A stretch of DNA of 53,296 nt. Source: a virus. The stretch covers positions 1 to 53,296 of the IMG/VR virus record IMGVR_UViG_3300049484_000358; one strand, 5' to 3'. Each line of letters begins with the position of its first letter. The stretch's first letter is position 1. The notes under the pieces are model-generated. The model was not told where the DNA came from. It made no database searches and worked only from the letters and a program-made list of their open reading frames with translations. Shown piece after piece: positions 5,812-38,394 of this stretch. A program made the position numbers and the translations under genes.

Positions 5812-6498
5812 ATGAGTAAGTTAGCGCAAGATCTTAAAACGCATATCCTGCAAGGTGATCCATACGAGAAGTTTGACTGGAGAAAATATCCAGATGATAT
5901 ATCTGGAGGTGAAATTTATCCAGACATGAAAGAAATTCTCGACTTGGTGAAACCTAATTTTGTAATTGAAGTTGGAACCTGGAAAGGTGCATCAGCTATA
6001 CATATGGCAGATGTACTTGCAATGCAGGGTAACAAAGATTTTACGATTCTTTGTATTGATACGTGGTTAGGTTCAATTGAACATTATATCATAGATCCAA
6101 GTAATCCCACTTGGGGGTTATCTGAACGAGTGTTCGGTGTTCCAACTACATATTATCAATTTCTTTCAAACGTTTGTCGTCGGGGCCTGCAGGAAAATAT
6201 CGTTCCATTTCCTAACACATCAGCAATCGCATATCAATGGTTTGTAATGCAGGAATCGCTGCAAGCTGATTTCATTTTCATTGATGCCGATCACAGTGAA
6301 GATGAGTGTTATCTCGATATTAAACGATGGTACGAAATGCTAGCTCCTGGTGGTGTTATGGCTGGTGATGATTTTGATCCGGCTTTTCATGGCGTCATTG
6401 CTGCTGTAAATAAATTCAGTCGTGAAATGCATCTTAAGTTCATTCGAACAGAATACCGACATTGGATGATTCAAAAACCTCCAATTAAAAACTCATGA
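5812..6498 (+). CDS. Class I SAM-dependent methyltransferase
   Basis: 228 residues. Rossmann-type methyltransferase of the Methyltransf_24/CmcI-like kind, which use S-adenosylmethionine on small molecules, sugars or lipids. Visible motifs: FVIEVGTWKGASAIHMA (motif I, about residues 53-69), ILCIDTWLGS (about 80-90), FIFIDADHSEDECYLDI (about 153-169) and LAPGGVMAGDD (about 178-188). A GGAGG site precedes the start. It ends just before the second late promoter. The substrate is unknown; it could act on virion glycans or a host metabolite. Confidence 0.8.
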   Translation: MSKLAQDLKTHILQGDPYEKFDWRKYPDDISGGEIYPDMKEILDLVKPNFVIEVGTWKGASAIHMADVLAMQGNKDFTILCIDTWLGSIEHYIIDPSNPTWGLSERVFGVPTTYYQFLSNVCRRGLQENIVPFPNTSAIAYQWFVMQESLQADFIFIDADHSEDECYLDIKRWYEMLAPGGVMAGDDFDPAFHGVIAAVNKFSREMHLKFIRTEYRHWMIQKPPIKNS

Positions 6499-10135: not shown

Positions 10136-10977
10136 CAACGATATACGGAGATTATTCAAATTTACGTGACACTCGTGAAATATACTTGGATAGTGCACAA
10201 ATAGGTGATGATACCCTGCTGCTTTCTATGATTCAACAGGCATCTGTTGACATCGACAGCATTTCACATCGCCGATTTTATCCGGTACTCGAAACTCGAA
10301 AATTTGATGCTCCATATTATTCGTATGATCTGCAGTTAAATGATGAAATTTTAGATGTTGACTCTGTTATTAATGGTAACGGTGATTCTTTAACTGTTTC
10401 AGATTTGGTACTCGTACCATACAATACTCTAACGCACCGTGTAATACGTTTATTACCAACAATATCTACATGGATAAACGGTCCATCAGGATTTCCATAT
10501 GCGGCCATATCAGTTACTGGTACGTGGGTTCATGCAGCGGATTACACAACTGGTTGGATGAGTATAGATACTTTGGATGCAGGTTTATTGGTTGGTGCTG
10601 CATCATTTACTGCGTCTCCTGGCGTGTTTTTTGCTGGAATGATTTTAAAAATCGACAGCGAATTTATGTATGTGTCATCCGTGACGGTGGCAGTTCCTCC
10701 TGGGACTACCGTTGATACCGTTTATATTACTCGAGGTATCAACGGTAGTGTCGCCGCCGGTCACTTAATAACTACAGCGGTGTATAAATGGAACCCAGGC
10801 CGTGATATAACCCTGCTGGCCGCTTCTGCGGCGGTGGCCTATTATCACTTAAAATCCAACCCTTCTGGAAATTCATACACTCTTGACGGTGTAACTTTTG
10901 AAACACCAAAAGATGTAACAGAATTTATTCGTACTCGACTTGTTCAATTAAATCTTATTCGGTTAGGTGTAGGATGA
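10132..10977 (+). CDS. Head-tail connector (gp6-like adaptor)
   Basis: 281 residues. The N-terminal 60 residues (DTLLLSMIQQASVDIDSISHRRFYP) match the pattern of phage head-tail adaptors that sit below the portal. The C-terminal helical part (ITLLAASAAVAYYHLKSNP, about 225-243) is also usual. A beta-rich insert of about 100 residues (TTGWMSIDTLD...) makes it longer than the typical 100-200-residue adaptor. ATGA overlaps on both sides tie it to the connector operon. Confidence 0.65.
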   Translation: MTTIYGDYSNLRDTREIYLDSAQIGDDTLLLSMIQQASVDIDSISHRRFYPVLETRKFDAPYYSYDLQLNDEILDVDSVINGNGDSLTVSDLVLVPYNTLTHRVIRLLPTISTWINGPSGFPYAAISVTGTWVHAADYTTGWMSIDTLDAGLLVGAASFTASPGVFFAGMILKIDSEFMYVSSVTVAVPPGTTVDTVYITRGINGSVAAGHLITTAVYKWNPGRDITLLAASAAVAYYHLKSNPSGNSYTLDGVTFETPKDVTEFIRTRLVQLNLIRLGVG

Positions 10978-11447
10978 CAATTGCGACTATTCGATTACGA
11001 TTAGCTAGTCTTCAAGCCTCCATACCTGGTGTTATAAAAGCATATCCTCAGCTACCTCGTGGTATTGTAAAAACAAACGAAATGCCGTTATTTATGACGT
11101 TTGTTAGAGAAGCCGATTACGATTTGGACACTGTTGGTGATGGTGATTTTATTACCAATAGAACATATCTTATGTGGCTTTTAGTAAAACCTGTGGCTGA
11201 AGGTGAGGAGGGTGAAGGTGAATCATTAGCAGAACCTTGGGTTGAAACTGTGGCTAATTTCTTTTTAGCACGTCCATCGTTGGGAAATCTTACTGGAATA
11301 ATGAATTCCTATATGATAAAAGATTCGGGTCCCAAAAAATTAGTATGGCCCGGAACGCCAGCAAACCCAACTGGAGTATATTGGGGAGTTGAATTTCAGC
11401 TCCGTGTAGCTGAATTTACAAAACGCATTTATGCGAATAATGAGTGA
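10974..11447 (+). CDS. Putative head closure/tail completion protein
   Basis: 157 residues; no firm family. Its position between the adaptor and the major tail protein is where head-closure and tail-terminator proteins are encoded. The segment WGVEFQLRVAEFTKR near the C-terminus fits the short beta-strand ends of such proteins. ATGA overlap with the upstream gene. Function inferred from position. Confidence 0.55.
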   Translation: MTIATIRLRLASLQASIPGVIKAYPQLPRGIVKTNEMPLFMTFVREADYDLDTVGDGDFITNRTYLMWLLVKPVAEGEEGEGESLAEPWVETVANFFLARPSLGNLTGIMNSYMIKDSGPKKLVWPGTPANPTGVYWGVEFQLRVAEFTKRIYANNE

Positions 11448-15786: not shown

Positions 15787-16169
15787 CAGCTGCATACGAA
15801 TATAAAATCGGAACTACATATGGTGGGTTGACAAATCTTGAAGATATGGCAACTCCAATACCTGCGCCAAAACATTCGTTAATCGAGTATTCTAAACCTA
15901 CTATACTTGGCGATACAACAGTTAGAGGACTTGGTTGGCGAAGAACTACCTGGCATTGGGACTTTTTAACTCAAGCGCAGTACACTGCACTTCGCGTATT
16001 ATGTGCGGCGCTAAGTTCATTTGTTTACATAAACACCCGTAAAAATGATGGATCATATCAAGTGTACACTGCAACTATGATATGGCCAGCCAATGAACCG
16101 GAATTTGTAAACAACAAGTTGCTCGACATTGATGTAGAGTTTAGAGCTCTGTTGGAGTACACTCCATGA
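15783..16169 (+). CDS. Distal tail / minor tail protein
   Basis: 128 residues. No certain family, but its size, beta-rich character and position between tape measure and the large tail-tip protein match lambda gpM-like or distal tail proteins. The end ATMIWPANEPEF...LDIDVEFRALLEY resembles minor tail proteins that form the ring at the tip. ATGA overlaps with both neighbours. Confidence 0.6.
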   Translation: MTAAYEYKIGTTYGGLTNLEDMATPIPAPKHSLIEYSKPTILGDTTVRGLGWRRTTWHWDFLTQAQYTALRVLCAALSSFVYINTRKNDGSYQVYTATMIWPANEPEFVNNKLLDIDVEFRALLEYTP

Positions 16170-19078
16170 GTCTTGTACGCGCTGCAACTGCTGGTGAATT
16201 AGTAAAACTTCGATCAAACGATCAGTGGTCAAAGTTATACGTTGCTATCCACAAACCAGCAGTTGTAATGTCCGCCAGAGTAAACCAGTCATTTACCACT
16301 ACAGATGATGTAACACAAATAATCTTTGATACCTCTTCTCCATTAAATTCGTATTTAAACGTTATTGGAGGAATGACTCTCTACGTAGGTACAACTGCTG
16401 GGGCATATGATTTGGGCATGGTTCGAATTCGCAAGGCAGCAACATCCACCGTTCTGTATATCGGTAGAACTAGTGATATTAAATGGTCAGATGATTTATA
16501 TTTAACTGTTGTTGATGAATTTTCTCTTTGGCAAAAACATTGGTTGGTTGATAGCGAAACAGCAGTGTATATGGATTATGATATTCCATATGGAAACCAA
16601 AATATTTTATTTGATCCGATTCCGGTTTTGGGTCCCGATGCCGTATTATGGTTGACTGGTGCAACAGTGGTGTTTAGTCCAACTGCTGCAGACAGTTGGG
16701 TATTCGATTCAACAATAACCGGGTATTCTTGGGCGGCGCCTGGTGCAAGTGCTACTGCAAATTTAACTACTGCAACACCAACTATAACCTACAATACCAC
16801 AGGTCAATATCGTATTTCATGTACAGTAACCGCTGCTAATGGTAAAACATTTACTGGTTATCGAACGGTATTTGTTTTTAGCACGAGTTCTATGCCACTA
16901 TTAGCAGTTGTTGATAACTGCACTGGAGACTATGATGCAGGTGGTTGGGCATTCACGCTGTCGGCCTATGAAAATTCCGCCTTATCTGACATCAGAGACG
17001 GTACAAAAGTTATACTCTTTGCAAGAGATTTTTATAACGCTGCTGAGGGATCGATTGGCCCGCAGACGGGATACGAAAATATCATTTGCAGTGGTTGGAT
17101 CGACGGCGAATCTATCGATTATAACGCTGAACAAGGACGAATTCGATTCACTGCAAAAGGTCCACAATCTAGATTAAATACAGAGATGACTTTTCCAGGT
17201 GGTTTACGGCAGTCTAGTGAGTTCAGTTGGTTATACACCGCTGCATTAACAGCGGATAAAGCCATAATGAATATACTGCACTGGCACAGTACATTTACCG
17301 CTATTGCAGATTATTATAAATCTGGTGATACACGACAAGCTGCAGGGTTTACGCCACCTCTCGGTACCTTATGGAATCAAATAACATACATTGCGAATAG
17401 ACTAGTTGCTAAACCTGTTTGCAATCGATACGGTCAATTCATTATGCAACCAGACCTGCAGGTATTACCGATTGCTAGCAGGTCAACTATTCCAATAGTT
17501 ATGTCCGTGGCAAAAGGCGATTGGGATAATAATGGTATAAACATCGAACGTCGAATAATTCCACAAACCTCAATGATTGAAATTAGTGGAACAGGGGACA
17601 CTGAAGCCGAAATATATTTCAGTCGAGCTCCTGGTAAAATATTCAAACGTTTTGGAAAACAAGAAACTCGCGATCAATTACTGCTGGCCGATCAAACAGA
17701 CGCCAATTTAACAGCAAAACTGCTGTATGCACAATCCAATAACGTGTATCCAAATGTAAATATTGATCTGGCTATGAACAACAGATTGATCGACATTTGT
17801 CCATATCAATATATTGATTTATCGATTGCATCTACTGATACAGTGCGTGGCATTACGTGGACGAATAAAAAACTTATTCCACGAAAAGTTACATACAAAT
17901 TTTCACCGGTTGATAATTCAATAATTACTGCTGTTGAATGCGAAGCAGAAACCACCGGCGATATGGATCCCGAAGGTCAAACTGTGATACCACCGACTTT
18001 GGGTAGAATAAATGTACCGAGCACTCCACCATTACCTGATTTTCCAACTACTCCATATGGAAGTCCATGGTATCCTGTTCCACCACCCGTAATTCCTCAA
18101 GATCCTGGTGTTCCGGATACTGGAGCATGTCCACTAGACACTCCACCTAATGGTCCATTTGGAATGTACATGAGTGGTGTTTTAGTCAATAACCGAACGA
18201 TGAGTTTATTTGGAATGATGGGGCGTCCGGTATATATTTCAAGATCTGCATCTGCCGATTATTTAACTACCGTCGTTCTCAACTGCTTGTTTGAAGAATT
18301 AACCGACAAATGGAATGAGGTTAGTGGCAGCGGTTGGGTTGAAGCGTATTTAATAAACCCCGCTGGTACACGAGTTGTTCAAGGTACAATTACTGGTAGT
18401 GGAAGACAACGGACAATTGAATTTGCGCCAATAACAAATATTCAATTTAGTGCATTTGAATTGATATTTAACAGTTCATATTACCCCGCTGCATTAACTG
18501 CTTCTAGTGTAGTTAACGATGCAGCATTTACATTCCATAATCCATTTGAAAACCCTACAGTTGTATCTGATGTTCGTACACTAGTAAACGATAGTGATGG
18601 TGCTCTACATTGGACGGCTGATGTTTCATGGACATCCGCGTATCCGTTTGATGGATACTATTATAAAACATCATTCAATCCACCGGCAGGATTTTTTACG
18701 CAGAATGGCGGTAATAATCAACCTGTCGAGGTATATGGAAGAATTACAACGCAAGCAGGCCAAGTTAATGCAGTTGGTATAGGTGTGTATGGTGGATTAT
18801 ATTATAATGATTCTGGCATACTCGTAGATTTTACACCAGGAATTAAAGGTGCTAGCGCGTATTTTCCAGGTTATGCCGCTGATACAACTGTAGATTTAAC
18901 CAGAGCTCCATATACCTCCCATAAGGGTGTTGGTTACTCATTAGGATTTGAGGTTGCTGTCGGTACAACGCACTCAGTACAAACGTTAACAACCCATACA
19001 GAAATGTGGATTAGACAGGTTTCAAGCAAACGAGTAACTGTTACATCTGCTGCAATATACAATTTGTGCACGGTATAA
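16166..19078 (+). CDS. Tail-tip/baseplate hub protein with PKD-like domain
   Basis: 970 residues, the longest protein in the window. The middle region (about 270-610: GYENIICSGWIDGESIDYNAEQ, RIRFTAKGPQSRL) is like tail hub proteins that bridge tube and fibres. An immunoglobulin-like PKD-type domain is seen at about 165-235 (ITGYSWAAPGASATA... YNTTGQYRISCTVTAANGK). A proline-rich linker at about 615-660 separates a C-terminal beta-rich half, likely the host-contacting part. The first base pairs overlap the previous gene as ATGA. Confidence 0.65.
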   Translation: MSLVRAATAGELVKLRSNDQWSKLYVAIHKPAVVMSARVNQSFTTTDDVTQIIFDTSSPLNSYLNVIGGMTLYVGTTAGAYDLGMVRIRKAATSTVLYIGRTSDIKWSDDLYLTVVDEFSLWQKHWLVDSETAVYMDYDIPYGNQNILFDPIPVLGPDAVLWLTGATVVFSPTAADSWVFDSTITGYSWAAPGASATANLTTATPTITYNTTGQYRISCTVTAANGKTFTGYRTVFVFSTSSMPLLAVVDNCTGDYDAGGWAFTLSAYENSALSDIRDGTKVILFARDFYNAAEGSIGPQTGYENIICSGWIDGESIDYNAEQGRIRFTAKGPQSRLNTEMTFPGGLRQSSEFSWLYTAALTADKAIMNILHWHSTFTAIADYYKSGDTRQAAGFTPPLGTLWNQITYIANRLVAKPVCNRYGQFIMQPDLQVLPIASRSTIPIVMSVAKGDWDNNGINIERRIIPQTSMIEISGTGDTEAEIYFSRAPGKIFKRFGKQETRDQLLLADQTDANLTAKLLYAQSNNVYPNVNIDLAMNNRLIDICPYQYIDLSIASTDTVRGITWTNKKLIPRKVTYKFSPVDNSIITAVECEAETTGDMDPEGQTVIPPTLGRINVPSTPPLPDFPTTPYGSPWYPVPPPVIPQDPGVPDTGACPLDTPPNGPFGMYMSGVLVNNRTMSLFGMMGRPVYISRSASADYLTTVVLNCLFEELTDKWNEVSGSGWVEAYLINPAGTRVVQGTITGSGRQRTIEFAPITNIQFSAFELIFNSSYYPAALTASSVVNDAAFTFHNPFENPTVVSDVRTLVNDSDGALHWTADVSWTSAYPFDGYYYKTSFNPPAGFFTQNGGNNQPVEVYGRITTQAGQVNAVGIGVYGGLYYNDSGILVDFTPGIKGASAYFPGYAADTTVDLTRAPYTSHKGVGYSLGFEVAVGTTHSVQTLTTHTEMWIRQVSSKRVTVTSAAIYNLCTV

Positions 19079-24921: not shown

Positions 24922-26245
24922 AATCGTCGCTCTTTTTGGTTCTGCACCAACAGCACCAGCACCTCCGGAAATCCCCTGGTATCTTGCCGGAGGTGTTCCG
25001 GAAGAGAATTGCTTGGCGGCATTCAATGGCATTGGTGCCAGAGACATCACGGAAGCTCTTACAAATCTGACTGGAAAATCTGGTGCAATTGTTACTGGTG
25101 ATTGGAATAACACGAATTACCTGGGTGCACTTGTTACCAATATTCCATTTACTCAAGAAATGTCTTTGCTTCTACGCTGTCATTGGAATAGAAGTTGGTT
25201 TCCGGTCCTTCTAAGGGGAGACATTCCTGTAGAACCTGATTCTGTATATCTAATGCTGGCGGTGGATTATAAAGCAGGATTTTCTACTATCAGATATGGT
25301 TCTGAATATCAGTATATTCCGGGAACCACCTGGACAAGTGCCAACATATTCACTTTGACTAGTTCTTTATTTAGAGTAGACTCCGTGCTTCAAACAGATA
25401 CGTTAGGTGCTCCTATTGCGTATACAAATATCTATCCAAATTTAGCGATAGGTTATTCTGCCTATGTAGACAACGAACAAGCAACCAGCTACACTATTCT
25501 TCCTTTAGATCAGCTTTCGATAGAAGCATTCGCGGTATACGATATTGATATAGCTCCTTATGCTCTCGATCTGGAAACTGCGATTTCAGAACTAACTGTT
25601 CCTGATCCCACAAGTTTTTGGTTTTATACACCTAGTGCAACTTGCATAGGAGCATATAAAGCTATTGGAGCTGATCCTACATATTCTATATACAACCTAG
25701 TCAATTATTATGAATATACACTAGCTGCCGCTGGAGAAAATGGATTTGACGTAGACCCAATCAACGGCTTTAGGCCTCTAGTGGACGGAATGTTAGCTGT
25801 AACTGGCATGCGATTTACAGATAATATGTCTTTGTTACTCCGAATTGGTGCCTCTGGTGAATGGGGGCAATATCTGTATCTTGCAAATTCTGGGCAGTAT
25901 TCCATCTTAAGTAATTTAAAATTTGATACTACATCAGCGAAGTATGGGAATATGGATGGTGCTATATTCGCTGGACGAATTCAGTCAAACGACATTATAG
26001 TATATACACCATCAGGGTTCATGATAAATGGAGTTTTAAAAGTAGATGGGTACGGGACACTTGTTCCATCTTCTCCCAATCCATTCCTTGCGTTTTTCGG
26101 ATATAGCGCCGTTACCAGTGAGGACATTTCAACGCTCACTCCTAATATGTACATGAACTTCAATATTCTAGCGTTCGCTGTGTATGAAGGTGATATTCTT
26201 TCTGACGGAGTAGCATTGAGTAATGCAATAGGAGCTTTAACATGA
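24908..26245 (+). CDS. Tail fibre-like protein with two tandem domains
   Basis: 445 residues built from two diverged copies of one beta-rich domain. Pairs: CLAAFNGIGARDITEAL (about residue 35) with CIGAYKAIGADPTYSIY (about 240); IPFTQEMSLLLR with MRFTDNMSLLLR; LSIEAFAVYDIDIAPYALDL with FNILAFAVYEGDILSDGVAL; each copy ends in I-ELT or IGALT. The layout resembles concanavalin/laminin-G-like carbohydrate-binding domains, so a glycan-binding fibre is plausible. AT-rich, unlike the fibre gene before it. ATGA overlap with the sulfotransferase. Confidence 0.6.
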   Translation: MNKNKIVALFGSAPTAPAPPEIPWYLAGGVPEENCLAAFNGIGARDITEALTNLTGKSGAIVTGDWNNTNYLGALVTNIPFTQEMSLLLRCHWNRSWFPVLLRGDIPVEPDSVYLMLAVDYKAGFSTIRYGSEYQYIPGTTWTSANIFTLTSSLFRVDSVLQTDTLGAPIAYTNIYPNLAIGYSAYVDNEQATSYTILPLDQLSIEAFAVYDIDIAPYALDLETAISELTVPDPTSFWFYTPSATCIGAYKAIGADPTYSIYNLVNYYEYTLAAAGENGFDVDPINGFRPLVDGMLAVTGMRFTDNMSLLLRIGASGEWGQYLYLANSGQYSILSNLKFDTTSAKYGNMDGAIFAGRIQSNDIIVYTPSGFMINGVLKVDGYGTLVPSSPNPFLAFFGYSAVTSEDISTLTPNMYMNFNILAFAVYEGDILSDGVALSNAIGALT

Positions 26246-26907
26246 TTTATGCAATTTGTTCTACCAATAGAACTGGATCATCGCTACTGTGCGAAATCCT
26301 GATGAATTCTGGCATTGCTGGCTATCCTGCGGATTTCACCAGCAGCCTCCACCTGGATCATTTCCTTCCAGAGTGCAAGCCTGTTAAACCTCTTACAAAA
26401 CAGGTTGTGATCGAATTGATGCAGAAATATTCGACAAATGGAGTGTTTGGCATAAAGGTGCCATTTGTGGCCTATCAAGATGAGATAAAGTCAAACACCC
26501 TGCTGGACATCTTTCCAGAGAAGCCGAAATTCATATACACCCATAGGAAAGATAAGCTGGATCAGGCAATATCTTCCCTGATTGCAGTTCAAAGTGGTAA
26601 ATACTACTCGTTTCAAAGTGCGCCGCTTCCTTCTTTTCAGTCGTATTCAAAAAAGAATATTGACACATTCCTGAACATTATCAATACTCAAGAGGAAGTA
26701 TGGGAGAAATGGTTCAACGCAAATGACATAAAGCCATTGCGAATATCGTATGAGGAACTTGAAGCTGATCCCTCCAAAACAGTGGGCAAAGTGCTTCAAT
26801 ACCTTGATATTGACGTTGCGGATTTTGCCATGCCTTCTACCAAACTTAGGAAGCAAGCGAATGAAGTCAACAACGAGTGGAAGCACAGATATGAGAGTGG
26901 TGAATGA
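26242..26907 (+). CDS. Stf0-like sulfotransferase
   Basis: 221 residues. Transfers sulfate from PAPS to a sugar or other hydroxyl group. The PAPS-binding 5' loop is CSTNRTGSSLLCEIL (residues 6-20), and IYTHRKDKLDQAIS (98-111) is the 3'-phosphate-binding motif; FGIKVPF (69-75) is also typical of Stf0 (trehalose sulfotransferase) relatives. Joined to the glycan-binding-like fibre gene by ATGA overlap. It may sulfate virion or host glycans; the acceptor is unknown. Confidence 0.85.
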   Translation: MIYAICSTNRTGSSLLCEILMNSGIAGYPADFTSSLHLDHFLPECKPVKPLTKQVVIELMQKYSTNGVFGIKVPFVAYQDEIKSNTLLDIFPEKPKFIYTHRKDKLDQAISSLIAVQSGKYYSFQSAPLPSFQSYSKKNIDTFLNIINTQEEVWEKWFNANDIKPLRISYEELEADPSKTVGKVLQYLDIDVADFAMPSTKLRKQANEVNNEWKHRYESGE

Positions 26908-32023: not shown

Positions 32024-32803
32024 CTAGTCGCGAGTGCAAATAAACAGTGCATTGTTAGACTCAGCTGGAAATGGTACAGCAGCGAATACACGAAAAAATG
32101 CATTTGGCATAACCTCTTTGATTTGCTCCGTATACTCGTTCATAAATACTGCTGGCAGGTGATCCATGCGAATGAACGTACCCATTGCATGAACAATACG
32201 AAATCCAGCCTGCTCCAGCAGTTTTACTTTTCCGTTGTACGTCCACTCACGTGGCTTGCCGTCTGCATCCAGATGGTTATCGGCAACAGTGTCTGATCCA
32301 CCGAGGTTCGGTGAACTCAAGAACATATACCCTCCAGGTTTCGTCCACGAGTATAACCTGCGGACTAACTCTGGAGCTAGAGACTTATCGATGTGCTCTA
32401 ACATTTCCGTGCAGACTACAACAGACTTTGGTCTGATTGTAGACGGATCATCCACAACGATGTTCATCTGGATGAGTTCAACATCAGCACCATCAGGCAG
32501 GCGTCCTTCTTCGATCCATGAAGATTTTGCACGCAGGTCAATTCCAGTGTAATCAAACCCATCCATACCAGCGCGATTGCGCCATAAATACGTAAGCAAT
32601 GGAAACCGACCACAGCCAACGTCCAGCAAGTCTGTAACTTGTTTGCGTTTTACGTGTTTCATAACAACGGCGTAACGGAAGACGTGTGCCATCCAGTCGG
32701 CGTGATCCATGAAACCATTATGAACGGCGTCGGTGGCATTTAGTTCGGTTAAATTTGAACCATTGTTTGTATTACCGATTACTCGAAAATTTTTAGTACC
32801 CAT
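32024..32803 (-). CDS. Class I SAM-dependent methyltransferase
   Basis: 259 residues. Motif I DLLDVGCGRFPLLTYL (about residues 57-72) binds S-adenosylmethionine; SVVVCTEMLEHIDKSL (about 126-141) and WTKPGGYMFLSSPN complete the Methyltransf_11-like fold. No DPPY/NPPY motif of DNA adenine methylases or PC motif of cytosine methylases is seen, so DNA bases are not the obvious substrate. Start at 32803 with AAAGGAG. It sits among nucleotide-metabolism genes, so a modified-nucleotide substrate is possible but unproven. Confidence 0.8.
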   Translation of the reverse strand: MGTKNFRVIGNTNNGSNLTELNATDAVHNGFMDHADWMAHVFRYAVVMKHVKRKQVTDLLDVGCGRFPLLTYLWRNRAGMDGFDYTGIDLRAKSSWIEEGRLPDGADVELIQMNIVVDDPSTIRPKSVVVCTEMLEHIDKSLAPELVRRLYSWTKPGGYMFLSSPNLGGSDTVADNHLDADGKPREWTYNGKVKLLEQAGFRIVHAMGTFIRMDHLPAVFMNEYTEQIKEVMPNAFFRVFAAVPFPAESNNALFICTRD

Positions 32804-32822: not shown

Positions 32823-33860
32823 TTACGCTTGTTGTAACGCAGCGAATGCCATGCGCTTCTCATTTGCTCTATGGCCAAGTAAAGCGTCTTTATCTACTTC
32901 ACCGACTCCTTTTCTCCAATCTGCATTTTCAACAAATGCATTATATAATGCCCATGATGTATTTGCCAGATGCGGGGTTTCATCATTGAAAGCCCCAAAC
33001 AATTCACGAACATTCACCTGCATAGTTTCTGATCGCTGTACGTAATAATCATAAGCTGCCGCGGCGGCAACGCCCTGCTGACGTATGTCGGCTAAGTCCG
33101 AATTACCTTCTGGTATTAGATCTACTAAACCCGCTTTAGCTGGAGTCTTTGGTTGCGGATAAACATAATCCAAAATTCTCGTAACCTGTTCGGCGGTGAT
33201 TTTGTACTTAGCCATCATTTCAAACGCGCTGATGGTTGCAACCTGCGACGTTACCATTTTACCGATAATGTTCAGATTGAATTCAAAGTTACGGCCAACG
33301 CCACTGCGGTGGTTCATTGAAATGTTGACAGCTGAGGTTTTAAGCGCGGTCATCAGTGCATTGGTACACCGCAATCGTAGAGTAGTAAAAATGCTTTTGA
33401 GTGATGTACCACCATCCAAAGTATCAACCAATAAATAGTACATTTCAACGGGATCTTTATGAATCTCTATTCTACCGGCGTTGAGTAGAAAGAAAACTGT
33501 TTGACCGCCGTCTATTTCACCGATTACTTCTAATGGCCAGCGTCCAGTGATAGCATCTAGTTTCGCTGCTAACTCCGAACGTTGAATAATCTCGAACTCT
33601 TTTCCACACCTACCAAACGGCGTATAAACACCGCTGGTGTGATCCGGTACCCGCATAAGTTCGTACTTGCCAAGCGGTACAGCGGTGGGTTTGCCTTCGG
33701 CATTTCTTACTGCTGCGTACGTCGGTGCTTTTATAACTTTGAAGTCGGCACCAATCTCACGTAGTGCAAGTGAAGCGGGTATGGCCGTGTCGAACTTTGT
33801 ACCCATACCTTCCCATATAGGACGACGAAAACCATCATTACGAAAATCGATTAGTGACAT
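32823..33860 (-). CDS. DUF932 family protein
   Basis: 345 residues. Matches the phage/plasmid DUF932 (TIGR03299-like) pattern: ADFKVIKAPTY near residue 40, GVYTPFGRCGKEFEIIQ (about 75-92), then LRCTNALMTALKTS and NHRSGVGRNFEFNLN. The family is common on phages and plasmids; its activity is not known. Start at 33860 with AAGGAG. One base separates its start from the stop of the hydroxymethylase gene. Confidence 0.85.
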   Translation of the reverse strand: MSLIDFRNDGFRRPIWEGMGTKFDTAIPASLALREIGADFKVIKAPTYAAVRNAEGKPTAVPLGKYELMRVPDHTSGVYTPFGRCGKEFEIIQRSELAAKLDAITGRWPLEVIGEIDGGQTVFFLLNAGRIEIHKDPVEMYYLLVDTLDGGTSLKSIFTTLRLRCTNALMTALKTSAVNISMNHRSGVGRNFEFNLNIIGKMVTSQVATISAFEMMAKYKITAEQVTRILDYVYPQPKTPAKAGLVDLIPEGNSDLADIRQQGVAAAAAYDYYVQRSETMQVNVRELFGAFNDETPHLANTSWALYNAFVENADWRKGVGEVDKDALLGHRANEKRMAFAALQQA

Positions 33861-33861
33861 G

Positions 33862-34596
33862 TTAGTCTCCTTCGATATTGTGAAGCATAAACATACTTTC
33901 AAGTGCTGTTCGTGTTGGACAACCTTTAACAATCTCGCGCGCCCACTCTTTATATTCAGACCACGAGTGTAATTTGGGCATGAAAAACACTTCTTCGCGC
34001 CAATTTATACCACCATCATGATCTGCGTATATGTGAGCATTCGTCATGTTTACTTTAGCTGTTCCAGGAAGCAACCCCAAGCAGCTGGCCATGGCTTGTA
34101 TAACCATGCCAAACTGAATCATGTCGTAGGGCAGTCCCCAAACAGCATCAGATGACCGCATTGTAATAGTGCAGTCTAATTCATTCGAATCCTGTTTGAT
34201 ATAAAACTGCATCTGTTGAGTACAGGGAATGGTATCTGGCGTATCATCATGATGCGCAATTAAAACAACTGCACGCCTGCTTGCGGGATCATTCTTCAAC
34301 TCGTTGATTGCCTGTTCAAATTGGTTTACAGTTCGCGGTCCATAAAACGACGTTGGACCAAATAAACCAAGATTAACTTTTGGCGCCGCTGCTGATATTG
34401 CTAGTGGTTCAGCGATACCTCCAATAAATTGGAGGCCTTCAATAAAACCGATAGCAGGGTTATCGTATGGCCTGCGCCACGTCGTTCCGGGTTTGAAGTC
34501 GAAAGATGCATTGTAATTGACCCATGTTTGTTTCCCACGCGGACTTAGCCGCGACCCCTTAAGTATCGATCTTCGATATCTTTGATAATAGTTCAT
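33862..34596 (-). CDS. dCMP hydroxymethylase-like (thymidylate synthase family)
   Basis: 244 residues. Thymidylate-synthase fold, but with features of T4 gp42, which makes 5-hydroxymethyl-dCMP from dCMP and methylene-tetrahydrofolate. The nucleophile is C125 in TIPCTQQMQFYI, followed by Thr, not the His of thymidylate synthase. Phosphate site R107-R108 in SRRAVV; MRSSDAVWGLPYDMIQF (146-162) puts Asp158 where thymidylate synthase has the Asn that selects uracil. That Asn-to-Asp change is the known switch to cytosine. H188 and Y190 (NAHIY) are kept. GGAG site; overlaps the dCMP deaminase by 38 bases. A dUMP enzyme cannot be fully excluded. Confidence 0.82.
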   Translation of the reverse strand: MNYYQRYRRSILKGSRLSPRGKQTWVNYNASFDFKPGTTWRRPYDNPAIGFIEGLQFIGGIAEPLAISAAAPKVNLGLFGPTSFYGPRTVNQFEQAINELKNDPASRRAVVLIAHHDDTPDTIPCTQQMQFYIKQDSNELDCTITMRSSDAVWGLPYDMIQFGMVIQAMASCLGLLPGTAKVNMTNAHIYADHDGGINWREEVFFMPKLHSWSEYKEWAREIVKGCPTRTALESMFMLHNIEGD

Positions 34597-35041
34597 TGTT
34601 ACTTCTCCATCCAGTATATTGTTCGATAGGTATGCCGAATCCGTGAAGCACTGTAATAGTCTCTTTAACTTTACTTCCGTATTCTTGCATATAAGTTACG
34701 CGTTTTACGCCGGCTTGAATGAGCCGTAAAGTACAACGCCAGCAGGGTATGTGCGTAGTGAACACCATTAACCCTTGAGTTGAACGGCCGATATATGCAC
34801 ACTGCAGTAGTGCATTTTCTTCCGCGTGGATTGCATTTATACAATGATGATCTGCATCTAAATTGCAGCCAACGGCGTCACAATGAGGAAATCCCCGCGG
34901 AGCACCATTAAAACCTGACGCGATCACACGATCATTGTCATCGTACAGCAGGGCACCAACTGCTGCTCGTGATGAGCAAGTACTGCGTCCCGCCCATGCG
35001 GCAGCAATCACTGCAAATGTACTATATATTAGTGGTCTCAT
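34559..35041 (-). CDS. Deoxycytidylate deaminase
   Basis: 160 residues. Converts dCMP to dUMP. Zinc-binding and catalytic motifs are complete: H72-A-E74 in IHAEENALLQCA and P99-C100-x2-C103 in HIPCWRCTLRLI. An extra Cys/His cluster (PHCDAVGCNLDADHHC) before the active site resembles the structural zinc of T4-type dCMP deaminases. Start at 35041 with a GGAGGAG site; it overlaps the kinase gene by 20 bases. With the adjacent hydroxymethylase it would control the dCMP/dUMP balance. Confidence 0.92.
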   Translation of the reverse strand: MRPLIYSTFAVIAAAWAGRSTCSSRAAVGALLYDDNDRVIASGFNGAPRGFPHCDAVGCNLDADHHCINAIHAEENALLQCAYIGRSTQGLMVFTTHIPCWRCTLRLIQAGVKRVTYMQEYGSKVKETITVLHGFGIPIEQYTGWRSNNELLSKISKIDT

Positions 35042-35936
35042 TCCAAGTCTCCTCCAACCAATAAAGAACTTGACGAAGTTCATGCTGTATAAGTTCTCTG
35101 GACGCGAAAACAGCTTCTTCCATACGTAAACCATTTTTAAATGGAAGAGTAAAAACCTGTTGCATAGAATCAAATGAACTGGACTCCAAAAAGTTTTTGG
35201 TTTCGTTTCCAAAACCAACAATGTATTTACTCGCTTCTAACATGTAGTCGGATACATTGTCCAGCAGTGTCCAGTGTGCTACTAATGCACTGTCACCGAT
35301 TTGACGCGCAAATGCAATACCGCTTTTTGTAGTAAACGGTAATAGATGTCCGGGTACCGCCGGTTTCTCTTCCAAATTATCTCCGATAAAAAGCACTCTA
35401 GAAAACGCTGGAACTCTACCGGGAAATTTTGACAGGATAGTTGCAGCCATCGTTGATACCGTTTTATTCATCCACTCTTCAGTATAATCATTCATAAGAG
35501 TTGTCCAACGAAAGCGATTAGCATACGCAGAATACGCCGTACGTTCGGCGTATACGTCAACAGGCAGATCAGTCTCATCATGCATGCCAATATTTAACCC
35601 TGCTAATGCGGGTAACATTATAATACCCATGCCATTGCCGATCAAAGCACGACGGTGTAACCATTCACCTAACCACGGATCGTTCGATAACCGACGATCA
35701 CGGCCAAGCAGGTTTCCATATACGTGTTCTGATGGCCATGCACGATCCCAAATTGTAATACGTTGTCGCGCCTGCAGGTCTTCTTTCAAAGCCGGTGTAT
35801 ATTCACGATCGTCGGTCTCGAGTCTTCCCCACTTACGCAGTCTAACGTCGTACGTTAATGACTGAAGATACGAAGTTAACTTACCGATGAACGTCGTTTT
35901 GCCGGATTTTTCGGGTCCATCAATTACAATAATCAT
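35022..35936 (-). CDS. P-loop nucleotide kinase fused to a C-terminal domain
   Basis: 304 residues. N-terminal P-loop IVIDGPEKSGKTTFIGKL (residues 3-20) and ITIWDRAWPSEHVYG (about 60-74, D-R motif) fit a thymidylate/deoxynucleotide-monophosphate kinase. From about residue 178 a second domain begins (SRVLFIGDNLEEKPAVPGHLLPF, AHWTLLDNVSDY) that looks loosely like the uracil-DNA-glycosylase fold (GD/E-N-PG-x-PF). Such a fusion is unusual. Three bases separate its ATG from the pyrophosphohydrolase stop. It might phosphorylate hydroxymethyl-dCMP, as T4 gp1 does. Confidence 0.72.
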   Translation of the reverse strand: MIIVIDGPEKSGKTTFIGKLTSYLQSLTYDVRLRKWGRLETDDREYTPALKEDLQARQRITIWDRAWPSEHVYGNLLGRDRRLSNDPWLGEWLHRRALIGNGMGIIMLPALAGLNIGMHDETDLPVDVYAERTAYSAYANRFRWTTLMNDYTEEWMNKTVSTMAATILSKFPGRVPAFSRVLFIGDNLEEKPAVPGHLLPFTTKSGIAFARQIGDSALVAHWTLLDNVSDYMLEASKYIVGFGNETKNFLESSSFDSMQQVFTLPFKNGLRMEEAVFASRELIQHELRQVLYWLEETWNETTNI

Positions 35937-35938
35937 TG

Positions 35939-36394
35939 TTACACCTGTTTGTATTCGTCGCCATGTTCGCCGAGGAACCGCTCAATGTTGGTGATGCTTT
36001 TCTTTGCATAGGCTTCGGCCAACTCACCTGGTGTAATCCCTAAACAGAACAGATAATGAATGATAATTCCCTGAAAAGCGAGGATGTCAGCGAACTCATC
36101 GACAACACGATCTTTGTCGAGGTTCTTCATATCCTTCCAGGGCTTCCAATTCAGAGTCTGTAGGAATTCGGATGTCTCAACAATCATTGCCAAGGTATAC
36201 GTTCTTATTGCATCTTTCGTTGGTAACATACCGTCTGCTGGAATTGCTCCAGAAACTGGAGATGACACGACTTTCTGCACTCGTTGCAAAAACGACAATC
36301 CCATAGCAAGATCATCTACAATAAGCTTGTTTTTCAAATTGGCTTTCATTTTAGCCATTGCTTCAATAACCGTTTCACGATGTGATACTGCCAT
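35939..36394 (-). CDS. MazG/dimeric dUTPase-like pyrophosphohydrolase
   Basis: 151 residues, all-helical. The metal-binding pattern E-x2-E (MIVETSEFLQTLNWKPWK, about 71-88) with later E-x2-D (VVDEFADILAF, about 97-107) is that of the all-alpha NTP pyrophosphatases (dimeric dUTPase, MazG, T4 gp56 dCTPase). It would remove dUTP or dCTP from the pool. Between the kinase and the polymerase, it fits a pathway that keeps unmodified cytosine out of phage DNA. Confidence 0.75.
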   Translation of the reverse strand: MAVSHRETVIEAMAKMKANLKNKLIVDDLAMGLSFLQRVQKVVSSPVSGAIPADGMLPTKDAIRTYTLAMIVETSEFLQTLNWKPWKDMKNLDKDRVVDEFADILAFQGIIIHYLFCLGITPGELAEAYAKKSITNIERFLGEHGDEYKQV

Positions 36395-36403
36395 TGTTTT
36401 CCT

Positions 36404-38173
36404 CTACGCTAACCAAAAATCTGGAAGTGAACCATCTTTATTGCGAGCAATTTCTGCTCGTACTGGACATTTACGAACAACCTTACTCATCCCGTCAATA
36501 AGAGCTTTTTGCAAATCGTTGGCGAAATCTTCAGCGATGTCATCAGGTACACAACACACTGCTTCGTCATGCACAACAGCGCCCATATAATCATCAAGAC
36601 CTTTTTTACCAGCTTCGATCAAACCAAGTTTCATTCCAACTGCTGCAGTACCTTGCACTGTTGTATTAAGGATTACAGCAGGTGTAAACTTCCGTCCAAC
36701 CAAAACCCTGCGGGCTTTGTTCGGCAGGGTTATTACCGCCACTTTGCGGTTCCTAGTTATGGCGTATGCTTTTTGTCGCATACCCCATAGACCTTGGAAG
36801 GTGTCGAAAAACGCTTTGAATAACATGGCGGCTTCTTCAAGTGTCATGTCACTGCCGTTGATGCGAGCGTACTCATAGAACCGACGGTAACTACCGCCGA
36901 ACAGCAGGGTGAATACCATGGCTTTAGCCAATTTACGTTGCTTAGGTTTCACGTCGGACTTTTCACATTTGAAAACCTGCGACGCAATGGATGTATGGAC
37001 GTCTTCGTCTTCCAGCAGGGTTATTAGTACATCATCATTAGATACATCCGCTGATATGCGAACTTCTATTTGTGAATAGTCGACTGATACAATTTTATGA
37101 CCAGGAATGTGACCGAATACCCAACGTCCGTCTTTTGGAACCTGCTGCAAGTTTGGATCTGATGATGATACACGAGTAGTGTCAGCACCGATCTGCCAGA
37201 ACCTGGCATGAATACGTCCATCCGCTTCAATGTGTTCCGCTTGCCAAACTTCAGATCCATACATCTCTGTACGTTTGTGTGGAGCACGCCAATCTAAAAT
37301 GGCTTGTAGTAGTCTAGCGTTATCCGATTCAGGATCGAACAGTATCTGGTCCACAAGTATGTCATGTGCTGTGGAGTCCAGCTCAATTCCAATCGAATTT
37401 AACGCTTTGCGTAATTGAATTGGTGAACCGTAGTTGAACGTACCAAGCCGCTCCTTCATAAGAACTTCGGCATCAACTACACGTACTTCCATTTGACGCA
37501 TGTATTCTTGAAGACTTGCATCGTCGATGGGTAAACCATTTAATGACATTTGTGAAAAGACGGGAAGCACTGCCATTTCCATGTCTAAGGCTGGAGTTTG
37601 TCCGCTGTCTTCGGCTTTTTGAATCTGTTCTTCAACCAATCCCGGCAGGACTAACACGTCAATCGCGGCGTACTTAATCTGATCAGGGCGCAACTGAGAG
37701 TTACGCCATCCACCGTGTTCTATGTTTTTGTCTACTTCGTAACCGGTACGACGACGTACCGACGCACGTAGTGATTTTGATACGTCACTACGGCCAGAAG
37801 TGGTAATGAGAGTTTCAGCAATAAGAGAATCATAATAAGAAGCTTTCTTCCACGGTATTCCAGCCAGTGCCAAATAATGAAGATCAAATGCCGCGATGTT
37901 ATGACCAATAAACGTCCTGCTGGGTTTGAATAAATCGGTTAACCATGGTTGCGGATGCCAATCTTCATGCACACGACCAAGGAATAAAGTCTTTGACTCG
38001 GGTTCGTACATCTGCAGCAATGCAATTTCACTGCGAAACGGACTTAACCCAGTTGTTTCCAAATCAAAAAAGATCCTGTCCGCTTTGTGGAATGCATCAA
38101 TAGCCTGTTGAGGAATTTCATCAACAGGCGTAAGCACTACGTTAGCGGCGTCGTAAAGCTTATCTGCATCCAT
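36404..38173 (-). CDS. DNA polymerase, family A
   Basis: 589 residues. Replicative polymerase with a 3'-5' proofreading domain: FFDLETTGL (D37, E39), FIGHNIAAFDLHYL (Exo II), YAAIDVLVLPG (Exo III). Polymerase motifs: VDYSQIEVRISA (A), RKLAKAMVFTLLFGG (B) and AVVHDEAVC (C, 533-540). There is no 5' nuclease domain. The position usually Tyr in motif B (YG) is Phe here (LLFGG). Start at 38173, sharing one base with the upstream stop (TAATG); a longer frame would overlap that gene. Confidence 0.95.
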   Translation of the reverse strand: MDADKLYDAANVVLTPVDEIPQQAIDAFHKADRIFFDLETTGLSPFRSEIALLQMYEPESKTLFLGRVHEDWHPQPWLTDLFKPSRTFIGHNIAAFDLHYLALAGIPWKKASYYDSLIAETLITTSGRSDVSKSLRASVRRRTGYEVDKNIEHGGWRNSQLRPDQIKYAAIDVLVLPGLVEEQIQKAEDSGQTPALDMEMAVLPVFSQMSLNGLPIDDASLQEYMRQMEVRVVDAEVLMKERLGTFNYGSPIQLRKALNSIGIELDSTAHDILVDQILFDPESDNARLLQAILDWRAPHKRTEMYGSEVWQAEHIEADGRIHARFWQIGADTTRVSSSDPNLQQVPKDGRWVFGHIPGHKIVSVDYSQIEVRISADVSNDDVLITLLEDEDVHTSIASQVFKCEKSDVKPKQRKLAKAMVFTLLFGGSYRRFYEYARINGSDMTLEEAAMLFKAFFDTFQGLWGMRQKAYAITRNRKVAVITLPNKARRVLVGRKFTPAVILNTTVQGTAAVGMKLGLIEAGKKGLDDYMGAVVHDEAVCCVPDDIAEDFANDLQKALIDGMSKVVRKCPVRAEIARNKDGSLPDFWLA

Positions 38174-38394
38174 TAATACACCGTAACCCAATCGGTAACT
38201 GTAGCCAACAGGTGGTCATAATCACTTTTCATAGCAGAGGCACGAAAAGTAGAAATTTCCACTTCAGCGATACTGGCTTTACGCATAGCGGCAATAACTG
38301 CTCCAAGTATGAAAAAAGCATTACTGTCCTTGCCGATCAATTTCACTTTAACATTTGGATATTTGGGTCCATTACTTATGGTTTGTTCTGACAC
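38173..38394 (-). CDS. Small conserved phage protein
   Basis: 73 residues. The pattern VKVKLIGKDSNAFFILGAVIAAMRKA... and end SDYDHLLATVTDWV recalls a small conserved phage family usually near replication genes; its function is unknown. It is translationally linked to the polymerase by TAATG. AGAGGATAAC site region before ATG. Confidence 0.65.
   Translation of the reverse strand: MSEQTISNGPKYPNVKVKLIGKDSNAFFILGAVIAAMRKASIAEVEISTFRASAMKSDYDHLLATVTDWVTVY

What the first reader, a model, noticed from the sequence alone, without database searches (positions are those of the whole stretch)
33862..36394. A T4-like set for hydroxymethylcytosine DNA in a siphovirus
Seen: the thymidylate-synthase-family enzyme (33862-34596) has C125-T instead of C-H and Asp158 in GLPYD where thymidylate synthase has Asn. 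Known: the T4 dCMP hydroxymethylase differs from thymidylate synthase by the equivalent Asn-to-Asp change. Next to it are dCMP deaminase, a P-loop kinase and an all-alpha NTP pyrophosphohydrolase, matching T4 gp42, Cd, gp1 and gp56 roles. Inference: the phage replaces cytosine with hydroxymethylcytosine, perhaps further decorated, as defence against host restriction.
Basis: partly seen in the sequence, partly recalled or inferred. Interest (0 to 1): 0.82.

Follow-up and report, generated by a model that had tools for sequence, protein, structure and literature searches.

The report
Phage cytosine-modification cassette with linked methyltransferase
This phage carries a compact set of genes that very probably replaces ordinary cytosine in its DNA with a modified form, and next to them sits a methyltransferase that, in every relative where it could be checked, accompanies the same cytosine-modifying enzyme, so it may finish off a DNA base not yet described.

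Summary
The 244-aa enzyme at 33862-34596 is of the thymidylate synthase (TS) superfamily, with C125-T126 and Asp158 where TS has His and Asn. A dCMP deaminase, P-loop kinase, all-alpha NTP pyrophosphatase and DNA polymerase A lie beside it. By tree, profile and fold it belongs with hydroxymethylases (MilA, T4 gp42), not TS, so a dCMP substrate is well supported. "T4 hmC set" is only partly supported. The acid three residues before the catalytic Cys, essential in T4, is Thr122 here (Thr, Thr and Leu in three close relatives, Glu or Asp in the other three), so hydroxymethyl versus methyl is open. The kinase did not match the gp1-type kinase family; it is thymidylate-kinase-like with a uracil-glycosylase-like tail. 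New: two genes downstream sits a Hen1/UbiG-like methyltransferase. Of 63 viral contigs with this family, 57 encode an Asp177-type enzyme; the other 6 are cut short on the side where it would lie. Stenotrophomonas phage AXL3 has the same cassette; its DNA resisted 35 of 37 restriction enzymes and was cut only at A/T-only sites (PMC7504290). Best reading: dCMP is hydroxymethylated, incorporated, and perhaps O-methylated. Not shown chemically.

The parts
33862..34596 (-). TS-superfamily enzyme, predicted dCMP hydroxymethylase-like (E53, S83-x-Y85, R107/R108, T122, C125-T126, S148, D150, D158, H188, Y190; no TS C-terminal tail)
34559..35041 (-). dCMP deaminase with HAEE and PCxxC zinc motifs
35022..35936 (-). 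P-loop thymidylate-kinase-like nucleotide kinase (GPEKSGKTT) fused to a C-terminal UDG-superfamily-like domain (about 35025-35414)
35939..36394 (-). all-alpha NTP pyrophosphohydrolase (dUTPase_2 family; metal motif E73xxE76...E100xxD103)
32024..32803 (-). class I SAM methyltransferase, Hen1/UbiG-like (ExxEH...NH), genetically tied to Asp177-type TS-superfamily enzymes; candidate base-decorating enzyme
32823..33860 (-). DUF932 protein between the TS-superfamily enzyme and the methyltransferase; present in the relatives, role unknown
36404..38191 (-). family A DNA polymerase, conserved next to the cassette; would have to accept the modified dCTP

Best explanation
The cassette makes a C5-modified cytosine nucleotide and puts it into phage DNA. 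The all-alpha pyrophosphatase turns dCTP into dCMP; the TS-superfamily enzyme adds a one-carbon unit from methylene-tetrahydrofolate to C5 of dCMP, most likely as hydroxymethyl; the kinase starts re-phosphorylation; polymerase A inserts the modified dCTP; the deaminase turns part of the dCMP into dUMP for dTMP. The neighbouring Hen1/UbiG-like methyltransferase then probably acts on the new C5 substituent, plausibly O-methylation of the hydroxymethyl group. Shown here: homology, residues, synteny, genetic linkage. Inferred: substrate (strong), product (moderate), methyltransferase target (weak to moderate). Purpose, also inferred: protection from host restriction.
For: Asp158 = EcTS 177, the dUMP/dCMP switch. 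Thr126 = EcTS 147, the other position that separates modified-C contigs from unmodified ones. Ser148 and Arg107/108 match deoxy- rather than ribo-preferring enzymes. The family profile hits MilA CMP hydroxymethylase (7e-45) above any TS, and T4 gp42 (4e-30) too; the fold model (pLDDT 86) matches MilA best; the tree keeps canonical TS apart (100/100). No TS C-terminal tail, as in T4 gp42. AXL3 has the same cassette, and 35 of 37 restriction enzymes failed on its DNA, only A/T-only sites being cut; AXL3 also encodes ThyX, so its TS-superfamily enzyme is not needed for dTMP. Methyltransferase linkage: 57 of 63 contigs, the other 6 truncated; 0 of 14 weak hits in their loci. Nearest solved structures are Hen1 and UbiG, both O-methyltransferases.
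Against: The Cys-3 acid that activates the water in T4 gp42 is Thr122 here, and the sister virus has Thr there and Ser at -4, so no neighbouring acid compensates. Among unique C-T/Asp177 sequences 70 of 75 have Asp or Glu there. A close relative (L097) carries ThyX in the TS slot and shows no deaminase, so the slot can serve thymidylate supply. L094, L096 and L098 contigs show no deaminase. No chemical data exist for this virus, and AXL3's resistance does not identify the base.
Confidence: 0.66

Rival explanations
1. The enzyme is a dCMP methylase (Xp12-like): it makes 5-methyl-dCMP by hydride transfer, and phage DNA carries 5-methylcytosine.
For: TS N229D/N177D mutants make 5-methyl-dCMP (literature cited in PMC8670742). 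The water-activating acid is missing (Thr122; Leu, the TS residue, in relative L094). Phage Xp12 carries 5mC.
Against: No TS C-terminal tail, and C-T instead of C-H. The putative methylase-type Asp177 enzymes found here (L013, L018) keep LPPC and the TS tail and sit in the TS half of the tree. S83-x-Y85 is kept.
Confidence: 0.14
2. The set is a thymidylate-supply cassette: the TS-superfamily enzyme and deaminase together yield dTMP (from dUMP, or dCMP to 5-methyl-dCMP to dTMP), and DNA is unmodified.
For: L097 has ThyX in exactly this slot; the kinase is thymidylate-kinase-like; AXL3's authors read their cassette this way.
Against: Asp177 disfavours dUMP. AXL3 has both ThyX and this enzyme and has restriction-refractory DNA. 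The deaminase is not seen in three of seven clade contigs that keep the enzyme. A pyrophosphatase is present in six of the seven clade viruses with the enzyme (the seventh contig ends inside polymerase A) and was not seen in the L097 locus.
Confidence: 0.1
3. The enzyme makes another C5 product, for example 5-hydroxy-dCMP as in RB69-type phages, decorated later.
For: A TS-superfamily relative in Mosigvirus is assigned as a 5-hydroxy-dCMP synthase (PMC13390438), so product change within this superfamily happens.
Against: RB69ORF048c has RSQN where folate-using enzymes have RSxD; the window keeps D150 and E53, so folate use is expected. RB69ORF048c itself has Glu at Cys-3, so loss of that acid is not its hallmark.
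Confidence: 0.08
4. The methyltransferase is unrelated to DNA bases: it methylates RNA ends or a small molecule and is merely in the same operon.
For: Its nearest named relatives are Hen1 (RNA 2'-O) and UbiG (quinone); PHROGs labels the family 'tRNA methyltransferase'.
Against: 57 of 57 checkable contigs from very different phages pair it with an Asp177-type enzyme at varying distance and order; 0 of 14 weak hits do so within their loci. In the window's clade it alternates with a glycosyltransferase-like protein in the other viruses.
Confidence: 0.3

Closest known systems
T4 gp42 dCMP hydroxymethylase (1b5e, 6a9b)
   Same: C-T nucleophile pair, Asp at the 177 position, S-x-Y, catalytic Glu, folate Asp (RSxD), no TS tail
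   Different: about 22% identity; Thr122 instead of the essential Asp145; separate branch of the tree
MilA CMP hydroxymethylase (5jnh)
   Same: best profile and fold match; C-T, Asp177-type
   Different: MilA keeps Asp at Cys-3; MilA's Lys133 and Ala176 are Arg and Ser here, predicting dCMP rather than CMP
Stenotrophomonas siphovirus AXL3 gp27-gp31
   Same: deaminase, TS-superfamily Asp177 enzyme, kinase with UDG-like tail, pyrophosphatase, methyltransferase
   Different: gene order; HisE/MazG-like pyrophosphatase; Asp at Cys-3; DNA known to resist restriction
Actinomycetia phage DSL-LC01 / Gordonia phage GodonK cassettes
   Same: kinase, Asp177 enzyme, deaminase, polymerase A in one run
   Different: annotated as thymidylate synthase; Asp at Cys-3; no such methyltransferase in the stretches read
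T4 gp56, Cd and gp1
   Same: same pathway roles expected; dUTPase_2-type pyrophosphatase and dCMP deaminase families
   Different: the kinase gave no hit to the deoxynucleoside monophosphate kinase family and carries a UDG-like domain
MetaGPA carbamoyltransferase system (PMC8670742)
   Same: Asp177 enzyme clustered with deaminase, pyrophosphohydrolase and a decorating transferase
   Different: the decorating gene here is a methyltransferase, not a carbamoyltransferase
Hen1 RNA 2'-O-methyltransferase / UbiG
   Same: class I SAM fold, ExxEH motif, nearest solved relatives
   Different: shorter; fixed phage partner of the cytosine-modifying enzyme; below NCBIfam cut-offs

Membership tests
TS superfamily | fold, catalytic Cys, phosphate-binding Arg, Glu58-equivalent | tested here: met
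   PF00303 2.3e-22; C125, R107, R147, E53 invariant; AF2 model pLDDT 86
thymidylate synthase proper | Asn at position 177, C-H, C-terminal closing tail | tested here: not met
   Asp158, C-T, no tail; below all NCBIfam TS cut-offs; outside the TS clade
dCMP hydroxymethylase | Asp at 177-equivalent | tested here: met
   D158, kept in L088, L091, L093, L094, L096, L098
dCMP hydroxymethylase | Asp/Glu three residues before catalytic Cys (T4 D145) | tested here: not met
   Thr122; sister Thr; 70 of 75 C-T/Asp177 sequences have the acid
dCMP hydroxymethylase | Ser/Thr two residues before catalytic Tyr (S94-x-Y96) | tested here: met
   S83-F84-Y85, kept in all 7 clade members
dCMP hydroxymethylase | conversion of dCMP to hm-dCMP | not testable with these tools
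   needs an enzyme assay
dCMP methylase (Xp12 type) | Asp177 with TS-like chemistry; reference sequence comparison | tested here: inconclusive
   Xp12 not held under the accession tried; putative methylase-like L013/L018 group with TS, unlike the window
RB69-type 5-hydroxy-dCMP synthase | loss of the folate Asp (RSQN) | tested here: not met
   window RSSD; RB69ORF048c RSQN
T4 gp1-type deoxynucleoside monophosphate kinase | match to the family profile (PHROG 139) | tested here: not met
   only PHROG 761 thymidylate kinase, 8e-9
all-alpha NTP pyrophosphohydrolase (dUTPase_2) | profile match and ExxE...ExxD motif | tested here: met
   PF08761 7e-9; motif conserved
dCMP deaminase | H(A/C)E and PCxxC zinc site | tested here: met
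   PF00383 2e-16; HAEEN, PCWRC
Hen1-like O-methyltransferase | ExxEH metal motif plus downstream His | tested here: met
   ExxEH in 63/63, [ST]P..NH in 62/63 relatives; but ExxEH is shared with UbiG, and metal binding was not tested
Hen1-like O-methyltransferase | NCBIfam Hen1 cut-off / RNA substrate | tested here: not met
   33.8 bits against a cut-off of 340

The most novel reading that the evidence does not exclude
A widespread phage system makes a DNA base not yet described: dCMP is hydroxymethylated by the TS-superfamily enzyme, and a dedicated Hen1-like methyltransferase caps the hydroxymethyl group (for example 5-methoxymethylcytosine), hiding phage DNA both from ordinary restriction enzymes and from defences or glycosylases that look for free hmC.
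Probability: 0.25. Interest if true: 0.85.

Novelty: new variant of a known kind. Interest (0 to 1): 0.58.

Why it matters
Asp177-type phage enzymes are known, but the tight genetic coupling of one methyltransferase family to them, in viruses of very different kinds, points to an unrecognised decorating step beside glucosylation, arabinosylation and carbamoylation. It is testable in an already isolated siphovirus (AXL3) whose DNA resists nearly every restriction enzyme for reasons its authors could not name. The loss of the water-activating acid in the window's clade also gives a natural experiment on how TS-superfamily enzymes choose between methyl and hydroxymethyl products. If right, databases that call these enzymes 'thymidylate synthase' and the methyltransferase 'tRNA methyltransferase' need correcting.

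Tried and rejected
1. A compensating one-residue insertion that would let Asp121 (Cys-4) replace the missing acid: rejected, the sister virus has Ser there. 2. A rule 'methyltransferase goes with no acid at Cys-3, glycosyltransferase-like protein goes with Glu/Asp' held in all 7 clade viruses, but most of the 55 methyltransferase loci with the enzyme in view have Asp at Cys-3; so at most a clade-level oddity. 3. RB69-type 5-hydroxylation by analogy: rejected on the folate Asp. 4. Single-sequence fold prediction: useless (pLDDT 34). 5. Nucleotide search of phages, single-protein scans of viral contigs for the TS-superfamily enzyme and the portal, tblastn of the kinase and the sulfotransferase in phages, and the genome-contig scan: nothing. 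6. Xp12 record by accession: not held. 7. Papers on methoxymethylcytosine in phage DNA or on sulfated phage DNA: no relevant hit in the open-access library, which does not exclude paywalled work or preprints. 8. Coordinates of the AF2 model were not available, so active-site distances could not be measured.

Full report
What was checked. The window is a whole IMG/VR virus record of 53,296 bases. The ORF at 33862-34596 on the minus strand gives a 244-residue protein of the thymidylate synthase superfamily. Its core reads IPC125-T126-QQMQF ... Upstream in the same tightly packed run lie the dCMP deaminase (34559-35041; the listed start at 35221 is too far upstream by comparison with the sister virus), the P-loop kinase (35022-35936), the all-alpha pyrophosphatase (35939-36394) and polymerase A (36404-38191). 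Downstream come a DUF932 protein, a class I methyltransferase (32024-32803) and the primase.

Conservation. A second virus, L088 (IMG/VR 3300044712_001664, 54.6 kb), carries the same block in the same order: TS-superfamily enzyme 56% identical, kinase 42%, pyrophosphatase 57%, deaminase 59%, methyltransferase 63%. A kinase scan and a TS scan then gave further relatives, L091, L093, L094, L096, L097 and L098. All but L097 have the TS-superfamily enzyme. L097 has ThyX in the same slot.

Which superfamily member is it? Canonical TS has Asn177, Cys-His and a C-terminal tail. The window has Asp, Cys-Thr and no tail. In a 47-row maximum-likelihood tree the TS sequences form one clade (100/100) that excludes the window; the window's seven-member clade (100/100) lies in the half that also holds AXL3, DSL-LC01, GodonK, SPO1 gp29 and MilA, while T4 gp42 falls elsewhere outside TS. 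A profile of the family hits MilA CMP hydroxymethylase at 7e-45, ahead of every TS, and T4 gp42 at 4e-30. The AlphaFold2 model made with 28 sequences is good (pLDDT 86, pTM 0.88) and MilA is its best solved match (TM 0.72 by query length; listed TS chains 0.57-0.69). Ser148 and the Arg pair are those of deoxy-preferring enzymes, where MilA has Ala and Lys.

Substrate. Asn-to-Asp at position 177 switches TS from dUMP to dCMP, and positions 177 and 147 are the two that best separate modified-cytosine phage contigs from unmodified ones (PMC8670742). The window is of the modified type at position 177 and is not His at 147. I rate a dCMP substrate at about 0.9.

Product. The ternary structure of T4 gp42 names the hydroxymethylation signature: Asp or Glu three residues before the catalytic Cys (D145; D145N is dead) and Ser/Thr two residues before the catalytic Tyr (PMC6400193). 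The window has the second (S83-F84-Y85) but not the first: Thr122. The sister virus and L093 also have Thr, L094 has Leu, while L091, L096 and L098 have Glu, Glu and Asp. Across unique C-T/Asp177 sequences 68 have Asp, 2 Glu, 3 Thr, 1 Asn and 1 Leu. So the missing acid is real, rare and confined. Methylation is not favoured either: the tail needed for hydride transfer in TS is absent, and the putative methylase-like Asp177 sequences found here (L013, L018) keep LPPC and the tail and group with TS. RB69-type 5-hydroxylation is unlikely, since that enzyme has lost the folate Asp that the window keeps. I put hydroxymethyl at roughly two in three.

The kinase. It gave no match to the deoxynucleoside monophosphate kinase family. 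Its N-terminal half is thymidylate-kinase-like (PHROG 761, 8e-9). The C-terminal 130 residues of the kinase in this group match Pfam UDG in 4 of 7 members (best 6.8e-7, no other family), and the only PDB profile hits, weak, are a Thermotoga UDG. The AXL3 kinase has the same tail. In the window and sister the HP motif of that domain is degraded, and the window's own copy did not match on its own.

The methyltransferase. A scan for its family in viral contigs, using methyltransferase sequence only, returned 63 strong members (profile over 100 bits) and 14 weak ones. A C-T/Asp177-type TS-superfamily ORF lies in the same locus in 55 of the 63, and two more have a family match elsewhere on the contig. 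The remaining six contigs end 0-3.75 kb downstream of the methyltransferase, on the side where the enzyme lies in their relatives. None of the 14 weak hits has it within the locus. One of the five seed rows (L077) came from a TS scan, a mild bias; the 63 were found without using TS sequence. The dependence is one-way: many Asp177 loci lack the methyltransferase, as expected for a decorator that needs hmC. In the window's clade it alternates with a 340-residue protein of unknown family that I suspect, by eye only, to be a glycosyltransferase. Its nearest solved relatives are bacterial Hen1 and UbiG, both O-methyltransferases; ExxEH is kept in 63 of 63 and the downstream NH in 62 of 63.

Independent wet evidence. 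Stenotrophomonas siphovirus AXL3 carries methyltransferase, pyrophosphatase, kinase with UDG-like tail, Asp177 enzyme (Asp at Cys-3) and deaminase in one run. Its authors found that 35 of 37 restriction enzymes failed to cut its DNA, while TasI and Tru1I, whose sites are A/T only, succeeded; they read the enzyme as thymidylate synthase although the phage also has ThyX, and left the modification unnamed (PMC7504290). This fits cytosine modification but does not identify the base.

Mechanism, with status. Pyrophosphatase removes dCTP (inferred from family). TS-superfamily enzyme modifies dCMP at C5 with methylene-THF (strong inference). Kinase phosphorylates the product (inferred). Polymerase inserts it (inferred). 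Deaminase supplies dUMP (family role; not seen in three clade contigs). Methyltransferase acts on the C5 substituent (inferred from linkage and O-methyltransferase kinship).

Verdict. The base case is a new member of a known kind; the methyltransferase linkage and the altered active site make it a new variant. Everything about chemistry is prediction.

Noticed in passing
window 26242-26907 (+): Stf0-type sulfotransferase (Pfam PF09037, 7e-35) at the end of the structural gene run; no relative in the phage collection. Target unknown.
   Followed up: partly
window 5812-6498 (+): Methyltransf_24 / TylF-like methyltransferase (4.5e-16) lying within the head-gene region.
   Followed up: no
window 35025-35414 (-), L091, L093, L094, L096, L182: Nucleotide kinase fused to a uracil-DNA-glycosylase-like domain (4 of 7 match Pfam UDG); the HP motif is degraded in the window and L088 copies.
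   Followed up: partly
L097 9688-10527: A relative with the same synteny has ThyX where the window has the TS-superfamily enzyme, and no deaminase.
   Followed up: partly
L096 6994-8001, L098 6998-7987: Divergent C5-cytosine-methylase-like protein (PPCSRFS; Pfam PF00145 about 5e-3) directly before the kinase, next to a possible glycosyltransferase.
   Followed up: partly
L013 7785-8630, L018 881-1729, L051 6997-7800: Asp177 enzymes that group with canonical TS and keep its tail (L013/L018 also LPPC): candidate dCMP methylases.
   Followed up: no
L009 7956-8918: Another Asp177 enzyme without the Cys-3 acid (Asn), on a 54 kb contig.
   Followed up: no
window 16166-19078 (+): Large structural protein 39% identical over its first 625 residues to a protein of Virus Rctr41k from a methane-oxidising/anammox enrichment; the only named relative found for it.
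   Followed up: no
L182 (AXL3) 10301-11110: Annotated thymidylate synthase, but Asp177-type with KDVPCT: probably a dCMP hydroxymethylase.
   Followed up: yes
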